From Achromobacter dolens (GTDB lineage Bacteria > Pseudomonadota > Gammaproteobacteria > Burkholderiales > Burkholderiaceae_B), in the NCBI RefSeq assembly GCF_902859745.1, contig NZ_CADIJW010000001.1, positions 434,001 to 498,000 of the forward strand: a stretch of DNA of 64,000 nt, read 5' to 3'. How positions within the stretch are numbered: position 1 is the first letter of the stretch; each line of letters starts with the position of its first letter. A program made the translations under genes and the position numbers. Under the pieces are notes generated by a model. It was given only the letters and a program-made list of their open reading frames with translations, made no database searches and was not told where the DNA came from. Of the stretch, positions 12,282-33,667 are shown piece by piece.

Positions 12282-12980
12282 TCAGTCCCTTGGCGCCGCG
12301 GTGGCGTCGGCATCCCCGGCCGCCGTCAGCAGATAACCCGTGCCGCGTTGCGTCTCGATGCGCAGCGGCGAGCCTTCCAGCTTCTTGCGCAGCCGCGCGA
12401 TGTAGACCTCGATGGCATTGGGCGCCGCGTCGTCATCGAACGCGAACAGCTTGTTGGCGATCTCGGCCTTGCTGACCGCGCGGTTCATACCGGCCAACAG
12501 AATCTCGAGCAGGCTGTACTCGCGCTTGGGCAGATCGATGCGCTGCCCCGCCAGGCTGACCTGCCGCGCCGCGCTGTCGATCACCAGTTCGCCAAACCGC
12601 AGCACCCCCGCCGCCTGCACGCTGGGCCGCCGCAGCAGGGCCCGGCAGCGCGCCTCCAGCTCGCGAAAGTCGAACGGCTTGGCCAGGTAATCATCGGCCC
12701 CCGTATCCAGCGCATGCACCCGATCCTCGATATCGATGCGCGCCGTCAACGCCAGCACCGGCGTCTTGCTGCCCCGATCCCGCAGCCGATGCAGGATCTC
12801 GAACCCCGACATGCGCGGCAATCCGATATCCAGGATCACCAGGTCAAAGGTCTCGTACTGCAACACCCCATCCGCGTTCAACCCATCATTCTGGCAATCA
12901 ACGGCATGCCCAAGACGACGCAGCCGACGCACAAGCGCGTCGGCCAGGTCCTCATCATCTTCGATCACCAGAATCCGCAT
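12282..12980 (-). CDS. OmpR-family response regulator, TctD-like
   Basis: A 232-residue regulator starting MRILVIEDDEDLADALVRRL. The receiver has phosphoacceptor DLVILDIGLPRMSGFEIL and switch lysine DDYLAKPFDFRELEARCRALLRR. A winged-helix C-terminal domain follows (LPKREYSLLEILLAGMNRAVSKAEI, EVYIARLRKKLE, RGTGYLL). Upstream in-frame starts would add only a short unconserved tail. The gene is first in a three-gene operon and diverges from the citrate transporter gene, its most likely target. TctD-type proteins activate tricarboxylate transport genes. Confidence 0.9.
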   Translation of the reverse strand: MRILVIEDDEDLADALVRRLRRLGHAVDCQNDGLNADGVLQYETFDLVILDIGLPRMSGFEILHRLRDRGSKTPVLALTARIDIEDRVHALDTGADDYLAKPFDFRELEARCRALLRRPSVQAAGVLRFGELVIDSAARQVSLAGQRIDLPKREYSLLEILLAGMNRAVSKAEIANKLFAFDDDAAPNAIEVYIARLRKKLEGSPLRIETQRGTGYLLTAAGDADATAAPRD

Positions 12981-13114
12981 GCGCGAGATTGTCGCATAGC
13001 GTCCCACGCCACCCTCACCACGCATCCGTCCCCCTGTAACCCCCTGTTAAGGCTGGCATTTCCCTCCACCCACGCGCAGCGGACACCTCACGCCATCCCC
13101 CACCGCGTAAGCCG

Positions 13115-13138
13115 TTTGGGCCGCCCGCGCGGCCCAAA
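13115..13138. other. 10-bp hairpin beside repeat copy 1
   Basis: TTTGGGCCGC (13115-13124) pairs with GCGGCCCAAA (13129-13138) over a CCGC loop. It lies in the divergent promoter region, so termination is not its obvious role. A hairpin with the same GGCCGC-N4-GCGGCC core stands at 24533-24568, beside repeat copy 2. Confidence 0.5.
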
Positions 13139-13206
13139 AAGGCGGGCCCCGCAAACCGCTCCCATGCCGCCGAGGTTCAGCAAAGCACCAAACCAAGATT
13201 CCGGTA

Positions 13207-13367
13207 GTCCGGGGCGGGCGGGTGTCGCGGGGCGCGCCGTCAGATGCGCCCGACGGAATCCGAAGGAGTCGCCGTAGGCGAGGACGAGGATGAGGAAGGG
13301 GCAGTCCGGAGCGAACGCTCCGGACCGCAATCGCAGGCGCGCCCCGCGACACCCGCCCGCCCCGGAC
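13207..13367 (+). repeat. repeat copy 1: conserved core between perfect 32-bp self-complementary arms
   Basis: Left arm 13207-13238 is the exact reverse complement of right arm 13336-13367. The 97-base core carries AGATGCGCCCGA near its left end and the 22-base palindrome GTCCGGAGCG-AA-CGCTCCGGAC at 13304-13325, followed by CGCAATCG. The core matches copies 2 and 3 closely, while the arms differ from theirs apart from the outer GTCCGGGGCGG shared with copy 3. The element fills the divergent region between the two-component operon and the citrate transporter gene. The rest of 12981-13510 holds the hairpin at 13115-13138 and presumably both promoters. Confidence 0.85.
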
Positions 13368-13510
13368 GGCCTACATCTCCTTTGTCACCCACTCCCCACC
13401 CGACCCCGGCCCCCCCAAAAACGACAGGTTCCAGACAGCTTTTCTTCCTAGTCTTCCGCCCCAGCGCCCCACCGGCGTGCAAATAACAACGAGCCCGGAG
13501 ATACCCCCTC

Positions 13511-14851
13511 ATGCTTTTGACCCTGCTTGGCTTCGGCATGGTGATCACGTTCATGACGCTGATCATGACCAAGCGCCTCTCGCCCCTGGTGGCGCTCATC
13601 CTCGTCCCCATCCTCTTCGCCCTGCTCGGCGGCTTCGGCGCCGGCATCGACAAGATGATGCTCGATGGCATCCGCAAGATCGCGCCCACCGGCGTCATGC
13701 TGATGTTCGCCATCCTCTACTTCGGCGTGATGATCGACGCCGGCCTGTTCGACCCCATCGTCGGCCGCATCCTGCGCGCGGTGAAGGGCGATCCGCTCAA
13801 GATCGTGGTCGGCACCACCGTGCTGGCGCTGGTCATCTCGCTGGACGGCGACGGCTCCACCACCTACATGATCGTGGTGGCCTCGATGCTGCCGCTGTAC
13901 CGCCGCCTGAAGATGAACGCGCTGTCCATGACCTGTCTGGCGATGCTGGCCAGCGGCGTCATGAACCTGACGCCATGGGGCGGGCCGACCGCGCGCGCCG
14001 CCAGCGCGCTGCACGTGGACGCCGGCGACATCTTCGTGCCGCTGGTGCCGGTGATGGGCGTGGCCATCGTCGCGATCCTGTTGCTGGCCTTCTTCCTGGG
14101 CCTGCGCGAACGCCGCCGCCTGGGGGTGCTGTCGCTGCCCGACGGCGCCTCGCTGCACGCCGGCTACGACGAGGACGGCCCCAAGAACCTGCCCGAGATC
14201 GAGGTCGACCACGACCTGCGCCGTCCCAAGCTGCTGTGGGTCAACGCCGGCCTGACGCTGGCGCTGATGGTGAGCCTGGTGATGGGCGTGCTGCCGCTGC
14301 CGGTGCTCTTCATGATCGCCTTCGCGATCGCGCTGATCATCAACTACCCGAACCTGGCCGAGCAGCGCCGCCGCGTGGCGCAGCATGCCGGCAACGTGCT
14401 GTCGGTGGTGTCGCTGATCTTCGCGGCGGGCATCTTCACCGGCATCCTGTCGGGCACGGGCATGGTGGAAGCCATGTCGCGCAGCCTGCTGGCGGTGATC
14501 CCCGATGCGCTCGGACCGTACCTGGCCGGCATCACCGCGCTGGTCAGCCTGCCGTTCACCTTCTTCATGTCGAACGACGCTTTTTATTTCGGTGTGCTGC
14601 CGATCCTGAGCGAAGCCGCGCAAGGCTATGGCATCACGCCGGTGGAAATGGCGCGCGCCTCGCTGATCGGCCAGCCGGTGCATCTGCTCAGCCCGCTGGT
14701 GCCGTCGACCTACCTGCTGGTGGGCCTGGCGGGCGTCGAGTTTGGCGACCACCAGCGCTATTCGCTCAAGTGGGCCACGATGGTCTGCCTGGTGATGCTG
14801 GCGGCCGCGCTGGCGTTCGGCCTGTTCCCCCTGGTCGGCTCCGTCGCCTGA
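13511..14851 (+). CDS. CitMHS-family divalent metal-citrate transporter
   Basis: A 446-residue inner-membrane transporter with about twelve hydrophobic segments. It has the LDGDGSTTYMI and NLTPWGGPTARAASALHV segments typical of CitMHS/ion-transporter proteins, which take up citrate complexed with Mg2+ or Ca2+ by proton symport. The start is preceded by CGGAG. A reductase gene follows 39 bases downstream in the same direction. The divergent TctDE-like system is the expected regulator. Since the substrate may be magnesium citrate, this gene may connect functionally to the magnesium locus 4 kb away, but no shared operator was seen. Confidence 0.9.
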   Translation: MLLTLLGFGMVITFMTLIMTKRLSPLVALILVPILFALLGGFGAGIDKMMLDGIRKIAPTGVMLMFAILYFGVMIDAGLFDPIVGRILRAVKGDPLKIVVGTTVLALVISLDGDGSTTYMIVVASMLPLYRRLKMNALSMTCLAMLASGVMNLTPWGGPTARAASALHVDAGDIFVPLVPVMGVAIVAILLLAFFLGLRERRRLGVLSLPDGASLHAGYDEDGPKNLPEIEVDHDLRRPKLLWVNAGLTLALMVSLVMGVLPLPVLFMIAFAIALIINYPNLAEQRRRVAQHAGNVLSVVSLIFAAGIFTGILSGTGMVEAMSRSLLAVIPDALGPYLAGITALVSLPFTFFMSNDAFYFGVLPILSEAAQGYGITPVEMARASLIGQPVHLLSPLVPSTYLLVGLAGVEFGDHQRYSLKWATMVCLVMLAAALAFGLFPLVGSVA

Positions 14852-24532: not shown

Positions 24533-24568
24533 CGCCCAAAAAGGCCGCCCGCGCGGCCGCCTTGGGCG
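24533..24568 (+). terminator. nested hairpin downstream of the AsnC gene
   Basis: CGCCCAA (24533-24539) pairs with TTGGGCG (24562-24568), and inside it GGCCGC (24543-24548) pairs with GCGGCC (24553-24558). It lies 127 bases after the stop and lacks a U-run, so termination is only likely. The inner stem matches the hairpin next to repeat copy 1. Confidence 0.45.
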
Positions 24569-24658: not shown

Positions 24659-24816
24659 GCGGGGTGGCCGGGCCGGGCGGAGGGCGGGGCGTGTAGATGC
24701 GCCCAAGGGAAACCGTAGGGAGCCGAAGGCGTACGAGGTTGACGCAGGGGCAGTCCGGAGCGAACGCTCCGGACCGCAATCGTAGCCCCGCCCTCCGCCC
24801 GGCCCGGCCACCCCGC
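24659..24816 (+). repeat. repeat copy 2: conserved core between perfect 32-bp self-complementary arms
   Basis: Left arm 24659-24690 is the exact reverse complement of right arm 24785-24816. The 94-base core begins GTGTAGATGCGCCCAAGGGA and contains the palindrome at 24753-24774 followed by CGCAATCG. The arm sequence is unlike those of copies 1 and 3. It lies between the AsnC gene and the hydrolase gene, upstream of operator site C. The remainder of 24407-25004 has only the nested hairpin, site C and a C-rich stretch. Confidence 0.85.
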
Positions 24817-30242: not shown

Positions 30243-31802
30243 ATGCACCACCTTCCTGTTTCCCAAGCGCTCGCGCTCAGCCTGGCCCTGGCCGCCGCGG
30301 GCGCGGCCCATGCCGCCACCCTGACCATCGCCCAGCCGGCCGACATCCGCTCGACCAATCCGGGCGTCAACCGCGACAACACCACCGACGGCGTGGTGCT
30401 GAACATGGTTGAGGGCCTGGTGGGTTACCGGGAGAACGGCACGGTGGCGCCGCTGCTGGCCAAGTCGGTCGACCTGTCCGAAGACGGCCTGACCTATACC
30501 TTCAAGCTGCGCGACGGCGTCAAGTTCCACAATGGCGCCACGCTGACCTCGGCCGACGTGCTCTGGAGCTGGCAGCGCTACATGGATCCGAAGACGGACT
30601 GGCGCTGCCGCAGCGACTTCGACGGCCGCAACGGCCTGAAGGTCACGGACGTGACCGCGCCGGACGCGCAGACGGTCGTCATCAAGATCGACCGCAAGTC
30701 GGCGGTGTTTCTCGATTCGCTGGCGCGCACCGACTGCGGCATGACGGCGATCCTGAGCAAGGATTCGGTCAACGCCGATGGCTCGTGGAAGCAGCCGGTC
30801 GGCACCGGCCCGTACCAGTTCAAGGAATGGAAGCGCGGCGAGTACGTGCTGCTGACCGCGTTCAAGGACTACGTGTCGCCCGGCGCCGGCGACAAGCCGG
30901 ACGGTTACGTCGGCGCCAAGCGTCCGCTGGCCGACGAGGTCCGCTTCCTGGTGGTGCCGGACCCGTCGACCGCCAAGGCCGGCCTGGTGTCGGGCGCGAT
31001 CGACGCGAGCCAGATCACCATTACCGACGTGGCCGAGCTGAAGAACAATGCGGCGGTGTCGGTGATGAGCCCGCACGACGCCACCAAGCACACGCTGCTG
31101 TTCCAGACGCAGGATCCGGTGCTAAAGAACGTCAAGCTGCGCCAGGCGATCGCGGCGGCGCTGGATATTCCGCAGGTGGTGGCGGCGGCTTCCGAAGGGC
31201 TGGGGCAGTTGAACAATTCGGCGGTGTACGCGGGGTCGGCCTACTACCAGGAAGCCGAGAAGCGCACCTACAAATACGATCCGGCGCGCGCGCAGCAGTT
31301 GCTCAAGGAAGCGGGCTACAAGGGCGAGCCGATCGTGATCTACGCCAACAAGCGCGCGCATGTGCCAAGCTACCAGGTGGCGGTGATCGCGCAGGCGATG
31401 ATGCAGGCGGTGGGCATCAATGCCAAGATCGAGGTGCTGGAATGGGCCACGCAGTTGGACCGCTACAACACGGGCAAGTACCAGATCAGTTCGTTCACGT
31501 TCTCGTCGCGGATCGATCCGGCGCTGAGTTTCGAGCAGTTCGCGGGCGACAAGAGCAAGCAGCCGCGCAAGGTCTGGGATGATCCCGAGGCGCAGAAGCT
31601 GATCGACGAGAGCTTCCTGGAGTCGGATCCGGCGAAGCGGCAGAAGCTGTTTGACCAACTGCATGCGTTAATGCTGGAGCAGACGCCTTTGTTGGTGCTT
31701 TATAACGGGGCGGATGCTTGGGCGACCAACAAGCGGGTGCAGGGGTTTTCGGTCTGGGAGGGGAAGCCGCGGGCCTGGGAGACTAAGATCGTTGGCAAGT
31801 AA
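30243..31802 (+). CDS. periplasmic solute-binding protein, family 5 (DppA/OppA type), paralogue 1
   Basis: A 519-residue binding protein with signal peptide (ALALSLALAAAGAAHA). Family 5 motifs are LSEDGLTYTFKLRDGVKFHNGATLTSADVLWSWQRY, PVGTGPYQFKEWKRGEYVLL, LRQAIAAALD and RAQQLLKEAGYKG. GGGGGA before the ATG sets the start. It is closely related to the binding protein at 32105-33667 (shared DIRST-PGVNRD, FKLR-GVKFHNGA-LTSADVLW, YKGxxI). It probably feeds the DppBC-like transporter encoded upstream, and its promoter has operator site D. The ligand cannot be told from sequence. Confidence 0.94.
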   Translation: MHHLPVSQALALSLALAAAGAAHAATLTIAQPADIRSTNPGVNRDNTTDGVVLNMVEGLVGYRENGTVAPLLAKSVDLSEDGLTYTFKLRDGVKFHNGATLTSADVLWSWQRYMDPKTDWRCRSDFDGRNGLKVTDVTAPDAQTVVIKIDRKSAVFLDSLARTDCGMTAILSKDSVNADGSWKQPVGTGPYQFKEWKRGEYVLLTAFKDYVSPGAGDKPDGYVGAKRPLADEVRFLVVPDPSTAKAGLVSGAIDASQITITDVAELKNNAAVSVMSPHDATKHTLLFQTQDPVLKNVKLRQAIAAALDIPQVVAAASEGLGQLNNSAVYAGSAYYQEAEKRTYKYDPARAQQLLKEAGYKGEPIVIYANKRAHVPSYQVAVIAQAMMQAVGINAKIEVLEWATQLDRYNTGKYQISSFTFSSRIDPALSFEQFAGDKSKQPRKVWDDPEAQKLIDESFLESDPAKRQKLFDQLHALMLEQTPLLVLYNGADAWATNKRVQGFSVWEGKPRAWETKIVGK

Positions 31803-31835: not shown

Positions 31836-32001
31836 GTCCGGGGCGGCGTTGGCCTGGCGTGCGCGGGGCTACGATTGCGGTCCGGAGCGTTCGCTCCGGA
31901 CTTCCCCTTCGTCATCTTCGTCACAGCCTGCGGCTGTTCCTTCAGATTCCCTCGGGCGCATCTACACGCCCCGCGCACGCCAGGCCAACGCCGCCCCGGA
32001 C
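31836..32001 (-). repeat. repeat copy 3 (inverted): conserved core between perfect 34-bp self-complementary arms
   Basis: Arm 31836-31869 is the exact reverse complement of arm 31968-32001. The 98-base core, read on the minus strand, begins GTGTAGATGCGCCCGAGGGA and has the palindrome at 31880-31901 followed by CGCAATCG, like copies 1 and 2. The element lies between the ends of two convergent paralogous binding-protein genes. The rest of 31803-32104 has a T-run at 32034-32041 and the hairpin at 32059-32089. Confidence 0.85.
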
Positions 32002-32104: not shown

Positions 32105-33667
32105 TTACTTCGCCACGCGCTCCACTTCCCAGGCGCGCGGCTTCTTGACGGCCCAGGGGGTGTAGCCCTGGATGTCGCTGCGGAAGGCGCCGATGTCCAG
32201 GCCGTTGTAGAGCGGGATGCTGGGGACGTCGGCCAGGAACAGCTTGTGCAATTGGTCGAAGGAGGCCTGGCGCTTGGCGTGGTCGGTGTCGACCGAGGCG
32301 GCGTCCAGGAGCTTCTGGGCGTCGGGATTGTCCCAGACCTTGCGCGGCTGCTTGGCCTTGTCGCCGGTGACCATTTCGTAGTTCAGCGCCGCGTCCAGGC
32401 GGGCGGAGTACGGGAAGGTCATCATCTGGTAGGTGCCGGCGTTGTAGCGGTCGAGCTGGGTGGCCCATTCGGACACGGACAGCTTGGCGTTGATGCCGAC
32501 GGCCTGCAGCATGGCCTGGATGATGACGGCGGAGTTGTACGACTGCGGGTAGCGCTTGGTGGTGATGAGCTCGATCTCCTGGCCCTTGTAGCCGGCTTCC
32601 TTGAGCAGCTTCTGGGCCAGCGCCGGGTCGTATTTCCAGCCTTCCTTCTGGGTGGCGTCGTGGTAAGGCGAGACCAGCGGGACGATGGAGTTGTTGGGCT
32701 TGGCCAGGCCTTCGGTGACGGCGGCGGCCAACTGGTCGTAGTCGATGGCGTGGGCCAGGGCCTGGCGCAGCTTGGGATTGGACAGCAGCGGGTCCCTGGT
32801 CTGCAGCAGCAGCGCGGTCATGCTCATGACCGGCGCGTAGGCGACCTTGACGTTGGGGGTGCCTTGCAGCACCGGCACGTCATTGTTGGAGACGTCCTCG
32901 ATGATGTCGATGTTGCCGCGTTGCAGGGCGGCCTTGGCGGTGGAGTCGTCGGGCACGATGACGAAGCGCACTTCATCGACCAGGGGGCGCTTGGAGCCGG
33001 TGTAGCCGTCGCGCTTGCCGTCGCGGTTGGCGTAGTCGGCGAACCGGGTCAGGCGCACATATTCCCCACGCTTCCATTCGGCGAAGACGAAGGGGCCGGT
33101 GCCGATGGGCTTGTCCCAGGTGCCGTCGGCCTTGACCGAGGCTTTCTGCAGGATGCCGGTGCCGCCACAGTCGGCGCGCGCCAGCGAGGCCAGGAACAGG
33201 CTGCTGGGTTTTTCCAGGTGGTAGACCACGGTCTGGGCGTCGGGCGCCTCGACGCCGGTGACCTTGACGGTGTCGCGGCCATCGAATTCGCTGGCGCAGC
33301 GCCAGCCGGCGTTGGCGGCGGTGTAGTGCTGCCAGGTCCAGAGCACGTCGGCCGAGGTCAGCGGCGCGCCGTTGTGGAACTTGACGCCCTGGCGCAGCTT
33401 GAAGGTGTAGGTCTTGCCGTCGGGGCTGATGTCGATGGATTCGGCCAGCAGGGGGCGCACTTCGGCATCCTCGCCGTAGGCCACCAGACCCTCGACGATG
33501 TGCAGCACCACCGCGTCGCTGTTGCTGTCGCGGTTCACGCCGGGCTCGGTCGAGCGGATGTCGGCGGTGAACGAGATGCGCAGCGGCGCGGGCGCCTGGG
33601 CCAGCGCGGAGCCTGCCAGCGCGCCCAGCGCCAGGGCAACCGCGGTATTCAGGAGTTTTGTTTTCAT
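32105..33667 (-). CDS. periplasmic solute-binding protein, family 5, paralogue 2
   Basis: A 520-residue binding protein with signal peptide (NTAVALALGALAGSALAQA). Family 5 motifs are SPDGKTYTFKLRQGVKFHNG, PIGTGPFVFAEWKRGEYVRL, LRQALAHAIDYDQL and LAQKLLKEAGYKGQE. It is a clear paralogue of the protein at 30243-31802. It follows the C45 hydrolase gene by 76 bases on the same strand, so both are probably transcribed from the promoter with operator site E. Two binding proteins for one permease pair suggests two related ligands. Confidence 0.94.
   Translation of the reverse strand: MKTKLLNTAVALALGALAGSALAQAPAPLRISFTADIRSTEPGVNRDSNSDAVVLHIVEGLVAYGEDAEVRPLLAESIDISPDGKTYTFKLRQGVKFHNGAPLTSADVLWTWQHYTAANAGWRCASEFDGRDTVKVTGVEAPDAQTVVYHLEKPSSLFLASLARADCGGTGILQKASVKADGTWDKPIGTGPFVFAEWKRGEYVRLTRFADYANRDGKRDGYTGSKRPLVDEVRFVIVPDDSTAKAALQRGNIDIIEDVSNNDVPVLQGTPNVKVAYAPVMSMTALLLQTRDPLLSNPKLRQALAHAIDYDQLAAAVTEGLAKPNNSIVPLVSPYHDATQKEGWKYDPALAQKLLKEAGYKGQEIELITTKRYPQSYNSAVIIQAMLQAVGINAKLSVSEWATQLDRYNAGTYQMMTFPYSARLDAALNYEMVTGDKAKQPRKVWDNPDAQKLLDAASVDTDHAKRQASFDQLHKLFLADVPSIPLYNGLDIGAFRSDIQGYTPWAVKKPRAWEVERVAK

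What the first reader, a model, noticed from the sequence alone, without database searches (positions are those of the whole stretch)
13207..13367. Repeat family with a conserved core but copy-specific, perfectly complementary arms
Three elements (13207-13367, 24659-24816, 31836-32001 inverted) share a 94-98 base core with GTGTAGATGCGCCC-like start, an internal 22-base palindrome and CGCAATCG end. Each core is enclosed by arms of 32, 32 and 34 bp that are exact reverse complements within a copy. Between copies the arms are mostly different. A transposon or MITE would keep its ends and let the middle drift; here the middle is kept and the ends covary. This calls for a process that copies one arm into the other (hairpin-primed synthesis, gene conversion) or selection for a long stem in DNA or RNA. 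I know of no named element with this plan.
Basis: partly seen in the sequence, partly recalled or inferred. Interest (0 to 1): 0.85.

Follow-up and report, generated by a model that had tools for sequence, protein, structure and literature searches.

The report
Repeat family with self-matching stems
Forty copies of an uncatalogued folded DNA/RNA element lie scattered through this Achromobacter genome, and each keeps a stem of about 33 base pairs almost perfectly paired although its sequence keeps changing, apparently because one arm is copied onto the other.

Summary
The window's genome (Achromobacter) holds 40 copies. Their 28-34 bp arms sum to 1282 Watson-Crick pairs, 7 G.U and 5 mismatches. 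Between copies arms are a median 59% alike, cores 82%. The arms are internal: the conserved unit starts about 165-200 nt before the core. At the window locus, 12 of 16 relatives chosen for alignment have an empty site where the window carries ~416 bp. A core search hits 36 of 37 genomes of the genus; a model hits 8 genomes in three other genera of the family. No Rfam match for copy 1.

In 28 ortholog pairs, 74 of 881 stem positions changed on both arms, 51 of them transversion-type; 21 changed on one side; 15 internal indels appear mirrored. G.U exceeds A.C 81:8 on one strand. I read this as a formerly mobile, structured intergenic element, selected as a folded strand (RNA more likely than ssDNA), with arms homogenised by replication template switching. 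Transcription, function and the mobilising enzyme are unproven, and long switch tracts are not shown.

The parts
13001..13416 (+). Stretch carrying copy 1, missing from 12 orthologous sites; its outer parts are C-rich and not shared with other copies
   Evidence: 16 relatives chosen for alignment: 12 empty, 4 filled; G020 lacks query 702-1117, HSP edges 1 bp apart
13074..13087 (+). 5' motif GCGCAGCG.. of the conserved unit
13103..13152 (+). Hairpin 1: GGCCGCCCGCGCGGCC (13119-13134) inside copy-specific outer arms, then GGCGGGCCCCGC
13207..13238 (+). 5' (left) arm of the 32-bp perfect stem, copy 1
13239..13335 (+). Conserved core of copy 1, a three-way junction in the predicted fold
13304..13325 (+). 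22-nt palindrome of the core, GTCCGGAGC-GAAC-GCTCCGGAC
13336..13367 (+). 3' (right) arm, copy 1
24543..24558 (+). Hairpin 1 core of copy 2
24659..24816 (+). Copy 2: 32-bp arms 24659-24690 and 24785-24816 around the core
   Evidence: L039
31836..32001 (-). Copy 3, inverted: 34-bp arms 31836-31869 and 31968-32001; between two predicted convergent ORFs; one of 4 copies of 40 without the standard hairpin 1
   Evidence: (L030)

Best explanation
This is an uncatalogued family of structured intergenic elements with a conserved unit of about 300-340 bp, which spread in Achromobacter and related genera and is now largely inherited in place. Inferred: the folded + strand is what is selected, more likely as RNA (a 3'-UTR or read-through transcript) than as single-stranded DNA. 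Inferred, well supported: the arms stay paired because replication template switching copies one arm onto the other, so that a mutation in an arm is mirrored or erased; leftover G.U pairs are tolerated. Inferred, weak: the job is a barrier or 3'-end structure between convergent genes, limiting antisense read-through or 3'-5' decay.
For: 40 copies: arms 1282 WC / 7 GU / 5 mismatch. 159 of 172 copies of the genus set scored: 92 perfect; 4908 WC, 81 GU, 8 AC, 35 other; no copy is counted twice. 28 ortholog pairs: 74 double changes (51 transversion-, 23 transition-type), 21 single, 15 internal indels; doubles 8.4% per position against 14.7-15.1% divergence in linker and tail. Window locus, read from the alignment: G002 and window arms differ by two mirrored substitutions and a mirrored 1-bp indel, and both stems are perfect. 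Pair asymmetry G-C over C-G 1.94 and T-A over A-T 2.99, in the direction that PMC8794818 (abstract, one Results section and Discussion read) predicts. Core: covariation score 0.112 against 0.034 shuffled, 0 of 500 as high. Seven genomes of other genera keep the plan (31 copies; 974 WC, 18 GU, 3 AC, 14 other). Gene gaps with an element are convergent in 60 of 102, without one in 40 of 311.
Against: No transcript data were available. G.U tolerance does not separate RNA from ssDNA, and a strand-biased C-to-T mutation process could also give more G.T than A.C. Double changes are not significantly clustered (13 adjacent against 10.2 expected, p 0.18), so switch tracts are not shown. The transition/transversion ratio of doubles (0.45) matches tail (0.57) and core (0.53) but not linker (1.17) or gene (1.11). 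Two of five covariation measures do not exceed the shuffles, and 19 of 28 core pairs never vary. Mirrored indels are inferred from left-arm alignments of equal-armed stems. G026 has the G002 left arm but nearly the window's right arm, possibly a recombinant. No mobilising enzyme was found. The spacer used as neutral yardstick lies in or beside the element.
Confidence: 0.6

Rival explanations
1. Selection alone: the stem is needed as RNA, and compensatory mutations fix one after the other through G.U states or together in large populations; no copying process is needed.
For: G.U exceeds A.C 81:8; core pairs covary; double changes are not clustered.
Against: 51 of 74 doubles are transversion-type and cannot pass through G.U; 15 internal indels keep the stem paired; doubles exceed singles 74 to 21 at over half the spacer divergence.
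Confidence: 0.2
2. The element works as single-stranded DNA: the + strand hairpin is the substrate of a recombinase, relaxase or ssDNA transposase, so selection acts on transfer and not on a transcript.
For: Stable DNA fold; insertion without visible duplication at the one junction aligned; solo copies lie 48:19 against the replication fork (loci shared between the three genomes).
Against: Y1 transposase (PF01797) found in 5 of 29 genomes and not in the window's; no associated enzyme identified; 115 of 156 copies fall into 39 groups with a shared 3' flank, so most look inherited in place.
Confidence: 0.15
3. Ordinary terminator or REP-like stem-loop repeats between convergent genes, where strong hairpins are favoured.
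For: Convergent-gap enrichment; stem-loop repeats near gene 3' ends are known, with Bor families in Bordetella (PMC1590033, PMC2267715, passages seen).
Against: A core of about 95 nt is recognisable across genera; the conserved unit is about 300-340 bp; one-strand G.U bias; near-constant stem length.
Confidence: 0.15
4. Gene conversion between copies: arms change when one copy is overwritten by another copy of the family.
For: Forty copies in this genome; some share identical left arms (L020/L037).
Against: L012/L147: six double arm changes while 94 of 95 core positions are identical; 147 distinct left arms among 159 copies.
Confidence: 0.1

Closest known systems
Hairpins maintained by template switching (rRNA, microRNA; PMC8794818, abstract and two sections read)
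   Same: Perfect stems kept by simultaneous both-arm changes; G-C and U-A excess on the 5' side
   Different: Here the stem is 28-34 bp and present in 40 separate copies of one genome with orthologs in other species, a large test set
Bordetella Bor repeats (Bor-1, Bor-2; PMC1590033, PMC2267715, passages seen)
   Same: Intergenic stem-loop repeats in a related genus (relation recalled); Bor-2 is a 167-bp model with 17 copies, close in size to the stem-loop here
   Different: The passages seen do not mention copy-specific mirrored arms; the sequences are not in the text, so identity could not be tested
REP/BIME elements mobilised by RAYT transposases (PMC3733652, passages seen)
   Same: Intergenic palindromes; GTAG at the stem foot of many copies; pairs in opposite orientation
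   Different: Much longer unit with a structured core; copy-specific arms; Y1 transposase in 5 of 29 genomes searched and not in the window's
Nematomorpha mitochondrial coding palindromes (PMC6649704, passages seen)
   Same: Perfect inverted repeats whose arms evolve in concert
   Different: Mitochondrial and coding; the passages seen describe no repeat family with a conserved core

Membership tests
MITE / terminal-inverted-repeat transposon | Terminal inverted repeats conserved between copies | tested here: not met
   Left-arm identity between copies median 0.59, core 0.82; arms are internal. In G106 the arms are alike
MITE / terminal-inverted-repeat transposon | Target-site duplication | tested here: inconclusive
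   None seen at the one locus aligned
REP/BIME with RAYT | Y1 tyrosine transposase in the genome | tested here: not met
   PF01797 absent from the window's genome; 5 of 29 genomes searched have it, four of them carriers
Retron | Reverse transcriptase beside inverted repeats enclosing msr-msd | tested here: not met
   PF00078 absent from carriers G001, G013, G018, G021, G030, G075, G139, G181. The window's genome has one match, about 8 kb from one copy on contig C48, not looked at further
Known Rfam RNA family | Covariance-model match | tested here: not met
   No match up to E 1 for window 12900-13700, both strands; copy 1 only
Structured RNA (or ssDNA) element | Covariation supporting a common fold on one strand | tested here: met
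   Score 0.112 against 0.034 shuffled, 0 of 500 as high; slid versions at most 0.022; but pairs with double changes (5 against 4.6) and further pair types (7 against 7.7) do not exceed the shuffles. GU:AC 81:8 in the arms
Structured RNA | Transcribed | not testable with these tools
   No expression data held
Stem maintained by template switching | Simultaneous both-arm changes, transversions and indels included | tested here: met
   74 doubles (51 transversion-type), 15 internal indels, 21 singles in 28 ortholog pairs
Stem maintained by template switching | Multi-base switch tracts | tested here: inconclusive
   Adjacent doubles 13 against 10.2 expected, p 0.18
Bor-2 repeat of Bordetella | Sequence match to the published family model | not testable with these tools
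   Family sequence not in the passages seen

The most novel reading that the evidence does not exclude
An undescribed class of mobile structured RNA or ssDNA element whose long stem is a freely rewritable part: its sequence hardly matters, its length and perfection are enforced, and both arms are rewritten together by replication template switching at near-neutral rate. The family would then be a natural, genome-wide recorder of template switching, with an unknown mobilising enzyme.
Probability: 0.3. Interest if true: 0.85.

Novelty: new variant of a known kind. Interest (0 to 1): 0.64.

Why it matters
How long perfect stems survive random mutation is an open question. PMC8794818 proposes template switching but says of stem maintenance that the strongest evidence is circumstantial, with short rRNA stems as the limit (Discussion read). 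Here one genome offers 40 stems of 28-34 bp, and its relatives offer orthologs at many levels of divergence, so the rate, spectrum and strand of both-arm changes can be measured directly. Copy 1 matches no Rfam family, and over half of the gene gaps with an element examined are convergent (60 of 102), so annotation of gene ends in this genus is probably incomplete.

Tried and rejected
MITE: arms neither terminal nor conserved between copies. REP/RAYT: no Y1 transposase in the window's genome. Retron: no reverse transcriptase match in eight carriers. Known RNA: no Rfam match for copy 1. Plasmid or phage element: no blastn match of copy 1 in 72,556 plasmid and 50,697 phage records. The 2.5-3.6 kb spacing of G106 pairs first looked like a complete autonomous element; the extra DNA includes a mutator-family insertion sequence. 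Clustering of double changes was tested and is not significant. Paper searches listed nothing that I recognised as this element; most papers were seen as listings only, and only open-licence papers are held. A search for Achromobacter transcriptomes listed nothing usable. One search asked for a cited paper that is not held.

Biases and dropped rows. Of 172 copies, 159 were scored for arms; 4 odd ones and 9 near ends or with N were dropped; a stricter recount gives 81 G.U and 7 A.C. Context used 139 of 172. One search used 119 of the 127 matches, leaving out the 8 weakest. One search used 31 of 34 matches. One search kept only pairs with left arms at least 72% alike, and one of its 68 pairs is within one locus (L122); one search needed 60% and lost none, but two pairs can come from one head-to-head locus. 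One search scored hairpin 1 in a fixed register that fails for bulged copies, so its totals are not used. R1 missed G065, which R2 finds, so distant copies are under-counted.

Full report
What was checked. The three elements of the window have arms of 32, 32 and 34 bp that are exact reverse complements within each copy. The genome holds 40 copies (42 rows, two of them the query's own arms). Their arms sum to 1282 Watson-Crick pairs, 7 G.U and 5 mismatches, with no gap. Between copies the left arms are a median 59% alike (48% when shuffled) and the cores 82%; within a copy the arms are 94-100% complementary.

Extent and structure. The arms are not the ends. Pairwise similarity between copies continues 5' of the stem for about 160 bp and then thins out; 3' of it there is almost none. 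A second hairpin around GGCCGCCCGCGCGGCC, with outer arms that again differ from copy to copy, begins 119-155 nt before the core in 36 of 40 copies, and a GCGCAGCG-like motif 165-201 nt before it in 21 of 40. With the tail this makes a unit of about 300-340 bp. In the predicted fold the core is a three-way junction. On the 40 copies 98.2% of cells pair, 55 cells are changed on both sides and the covariation score is 0.112 (0 of 500 shuffles as high for each), and sliding the partners removes the signal; but two other measures (pairs with double changes 5 against 4.6, further pair types 7 against 7.7) do not exceed the shuffles, and 19 of 28 pairs never vary. Two pairs carry most of the signal: C-G and G-C in 19 and 21 copies, U-A and A-U in 25 and 15. 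I read the G-A rich internal loops beside that helix as tandem sheared pairs, which is inference.

Distribution and mobility. A blastn search with the core hits 36 of 37 genomes of the genus and none of 24 genomes of other families. A covariance model hits 14 of 151 genomes of the family, 8 of them in three other genera. A second model hits 4 of 399 genomes across the order, all in the same family; both were scored with strict filters, and the second finds G065, which the first had missed. No match in the plasmid or phage collections. At the window locus I aligned 16 relatives chosen from the 42 genomes with a match: 12 have an empty site, with 1-67 bp between the same flanks by the edges of the matches, and 4 carry the element; the window insert is about 416 bp and no target duplication is visible. 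Two more loci show the same kind of gap but were not aligned base by base. Of 156 copies 115 fall into 39 groups that share a 3' flank. So the family moved in the past and is now largely inherited in place.

How the arms evolve. Of 159 stems scored in the genus set, 92 are perfect; together they hold 4908 Watson-Crick pairs, 81 G.U, 8 A.C and 35 other mismatches. In 31 copies from seven genomes of other genera the ratio is 18 to 3. Orthologous stems were then compared: 28 pairs, no copy used twice, mean flank identity 94.2%, 881 stem positions. 786 are unchanged; [quoted passage not shown] 21 changed on one side (10 G.U, 3 A.C, 8 other); 15 internal indels leave the stem paired. Doubles occur at 8.4% per position, against 14.7% and 15.1% divergence in linker and tail, 7.3% in the core and 5.5% in the downstream gene. 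Their transition/transversion ratio is 0.45, against 0.57 in the tail, 0.53 in the core, 1.17 in the linker and 1.11 in the gene. In a larger, non-independent set of 68 pairs the counts are 149 transversion-type and 86 transition-type doubles, 80 singles and 64 internal indels. An example in the window itself: G002 differs from the window's arms by two substitutions and a 1-bp insertion, each mirrored, and both stems are perfect (read).

Interpretation. Stepwise compensation through G.U yields transition-type doubles only, and selection against other mismatches makes transversion doubles and paired indels rare. Copying of one arm onto the other yields doubles near the neutral rate with the local mutation spectrum, which is closer to what is seen. 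Template switching at imperfect inverted repeats is a known mutation process (PMC7202029, start of abstract seen). PMC8794818 (abstract, Results section 'Causes and Consequences of CMs' and Discussion read) proposes that it maintains RNA hairpins and predicts an excess of G-C over C-G and of U-A over A-U. Here the ratios are 1.94 (bootstrap 1.83-2.06) and 2.99 (2.44-3.61). Against this reading, doubles are not significantly clustered, and G026 carries the G002 left arm with nearly the window's right arm, which may be a recombinant or a state caught half-way.

Place in the genome. 4 of 139 copies examined lie inside a predicted gene. Of 102 gene gaps with an element 60 are convergent, against 40 of 311 without one (odds ratio 9.7; crude gene prediction on the fetched loci, some of them orthologous). 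In three complete genomes 104 of the 119 copies used lie in the origin-proximal half, solo copies point against the fork 48 to 19, and all 26 close neighbours are head-to-head pairs (origin and terminus taken from dnaA and a dif-like site; loci are shared between the genomes). In the genus set 29 of 32 close neighbours within 2.5 kb are head-to-head. I infer a role at convergent gene ends, such as limiting antisense read-through or 3' decay, but nothing here tests it.

What it is not. Defining features of MITEs, REP/RAYT, retrons and Rfam families were tested and not met. The nearest published candidates that I found are the Bor repeats of Bordetella; Bor-2 is a 167-bp, 17-copy intergenic family (PMC2267715, passages), and identity could not be tested. 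I file the finding as a new variant of a known kind: a structured intergenic repeat family with an unusual, copy-specific stem whose arms evolve in concert.

Noticed in passing
L175, L176, L177, L178, L179 (G106): An insertion sequence of about 1382 bp, ~100% alike between loci, lies beside or between the elements in 5 of 6 loci fetched from G106, as if the element were its target; the ORF read in L175 matches a mutator-family transposase, PF00872.
   Followed up: partly
G027, G002, G018 complete genomes: Copies are concentrated near the replication origin (104 of 119 used in the origin-proximal half) and solo copies point against the fork 48 to 19.
   Followed up: partly
L009, L011, L021, L027 and others: Close neighbours are head-to-head in 29 of 32 cases, mostly 350-900 bp apart; several share a central hairpin GTGGTCGGCGCG..CGCGCCGACCAC.
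   Followed up: partly
13103-13152; L009-L044: The 5' hairpin also has copy-specific outer arms; where an A-tract abuts it, it would read as an intrinsic terminator for the convergent gene.
   Followed up: partly
G003: The one genome of 37 in the genus without a core match is small (4.9 Mb, 99% complete).
   Followed up: no
G015:C1:93605-98125; G024:C47:308780-313177; G019:C692:121456-125847: At the window locus these three genomes carry about 4.4-4.5 kb of other DNA between the same flanks.
   Followed up: no
30393-31802 and 32105-33538: The predicted ORFs flanking copy 3 are convergent and share stretches 73% alike over about 335 bp in inverted orientation, i.e. look like paralogs.
   Followed up: no
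C26, C38, C39, C59, C77, C85 of G000: Six copies lie within 900 bp of contig ends, as expected if long repeats broke the assembly.
   Followed up: no
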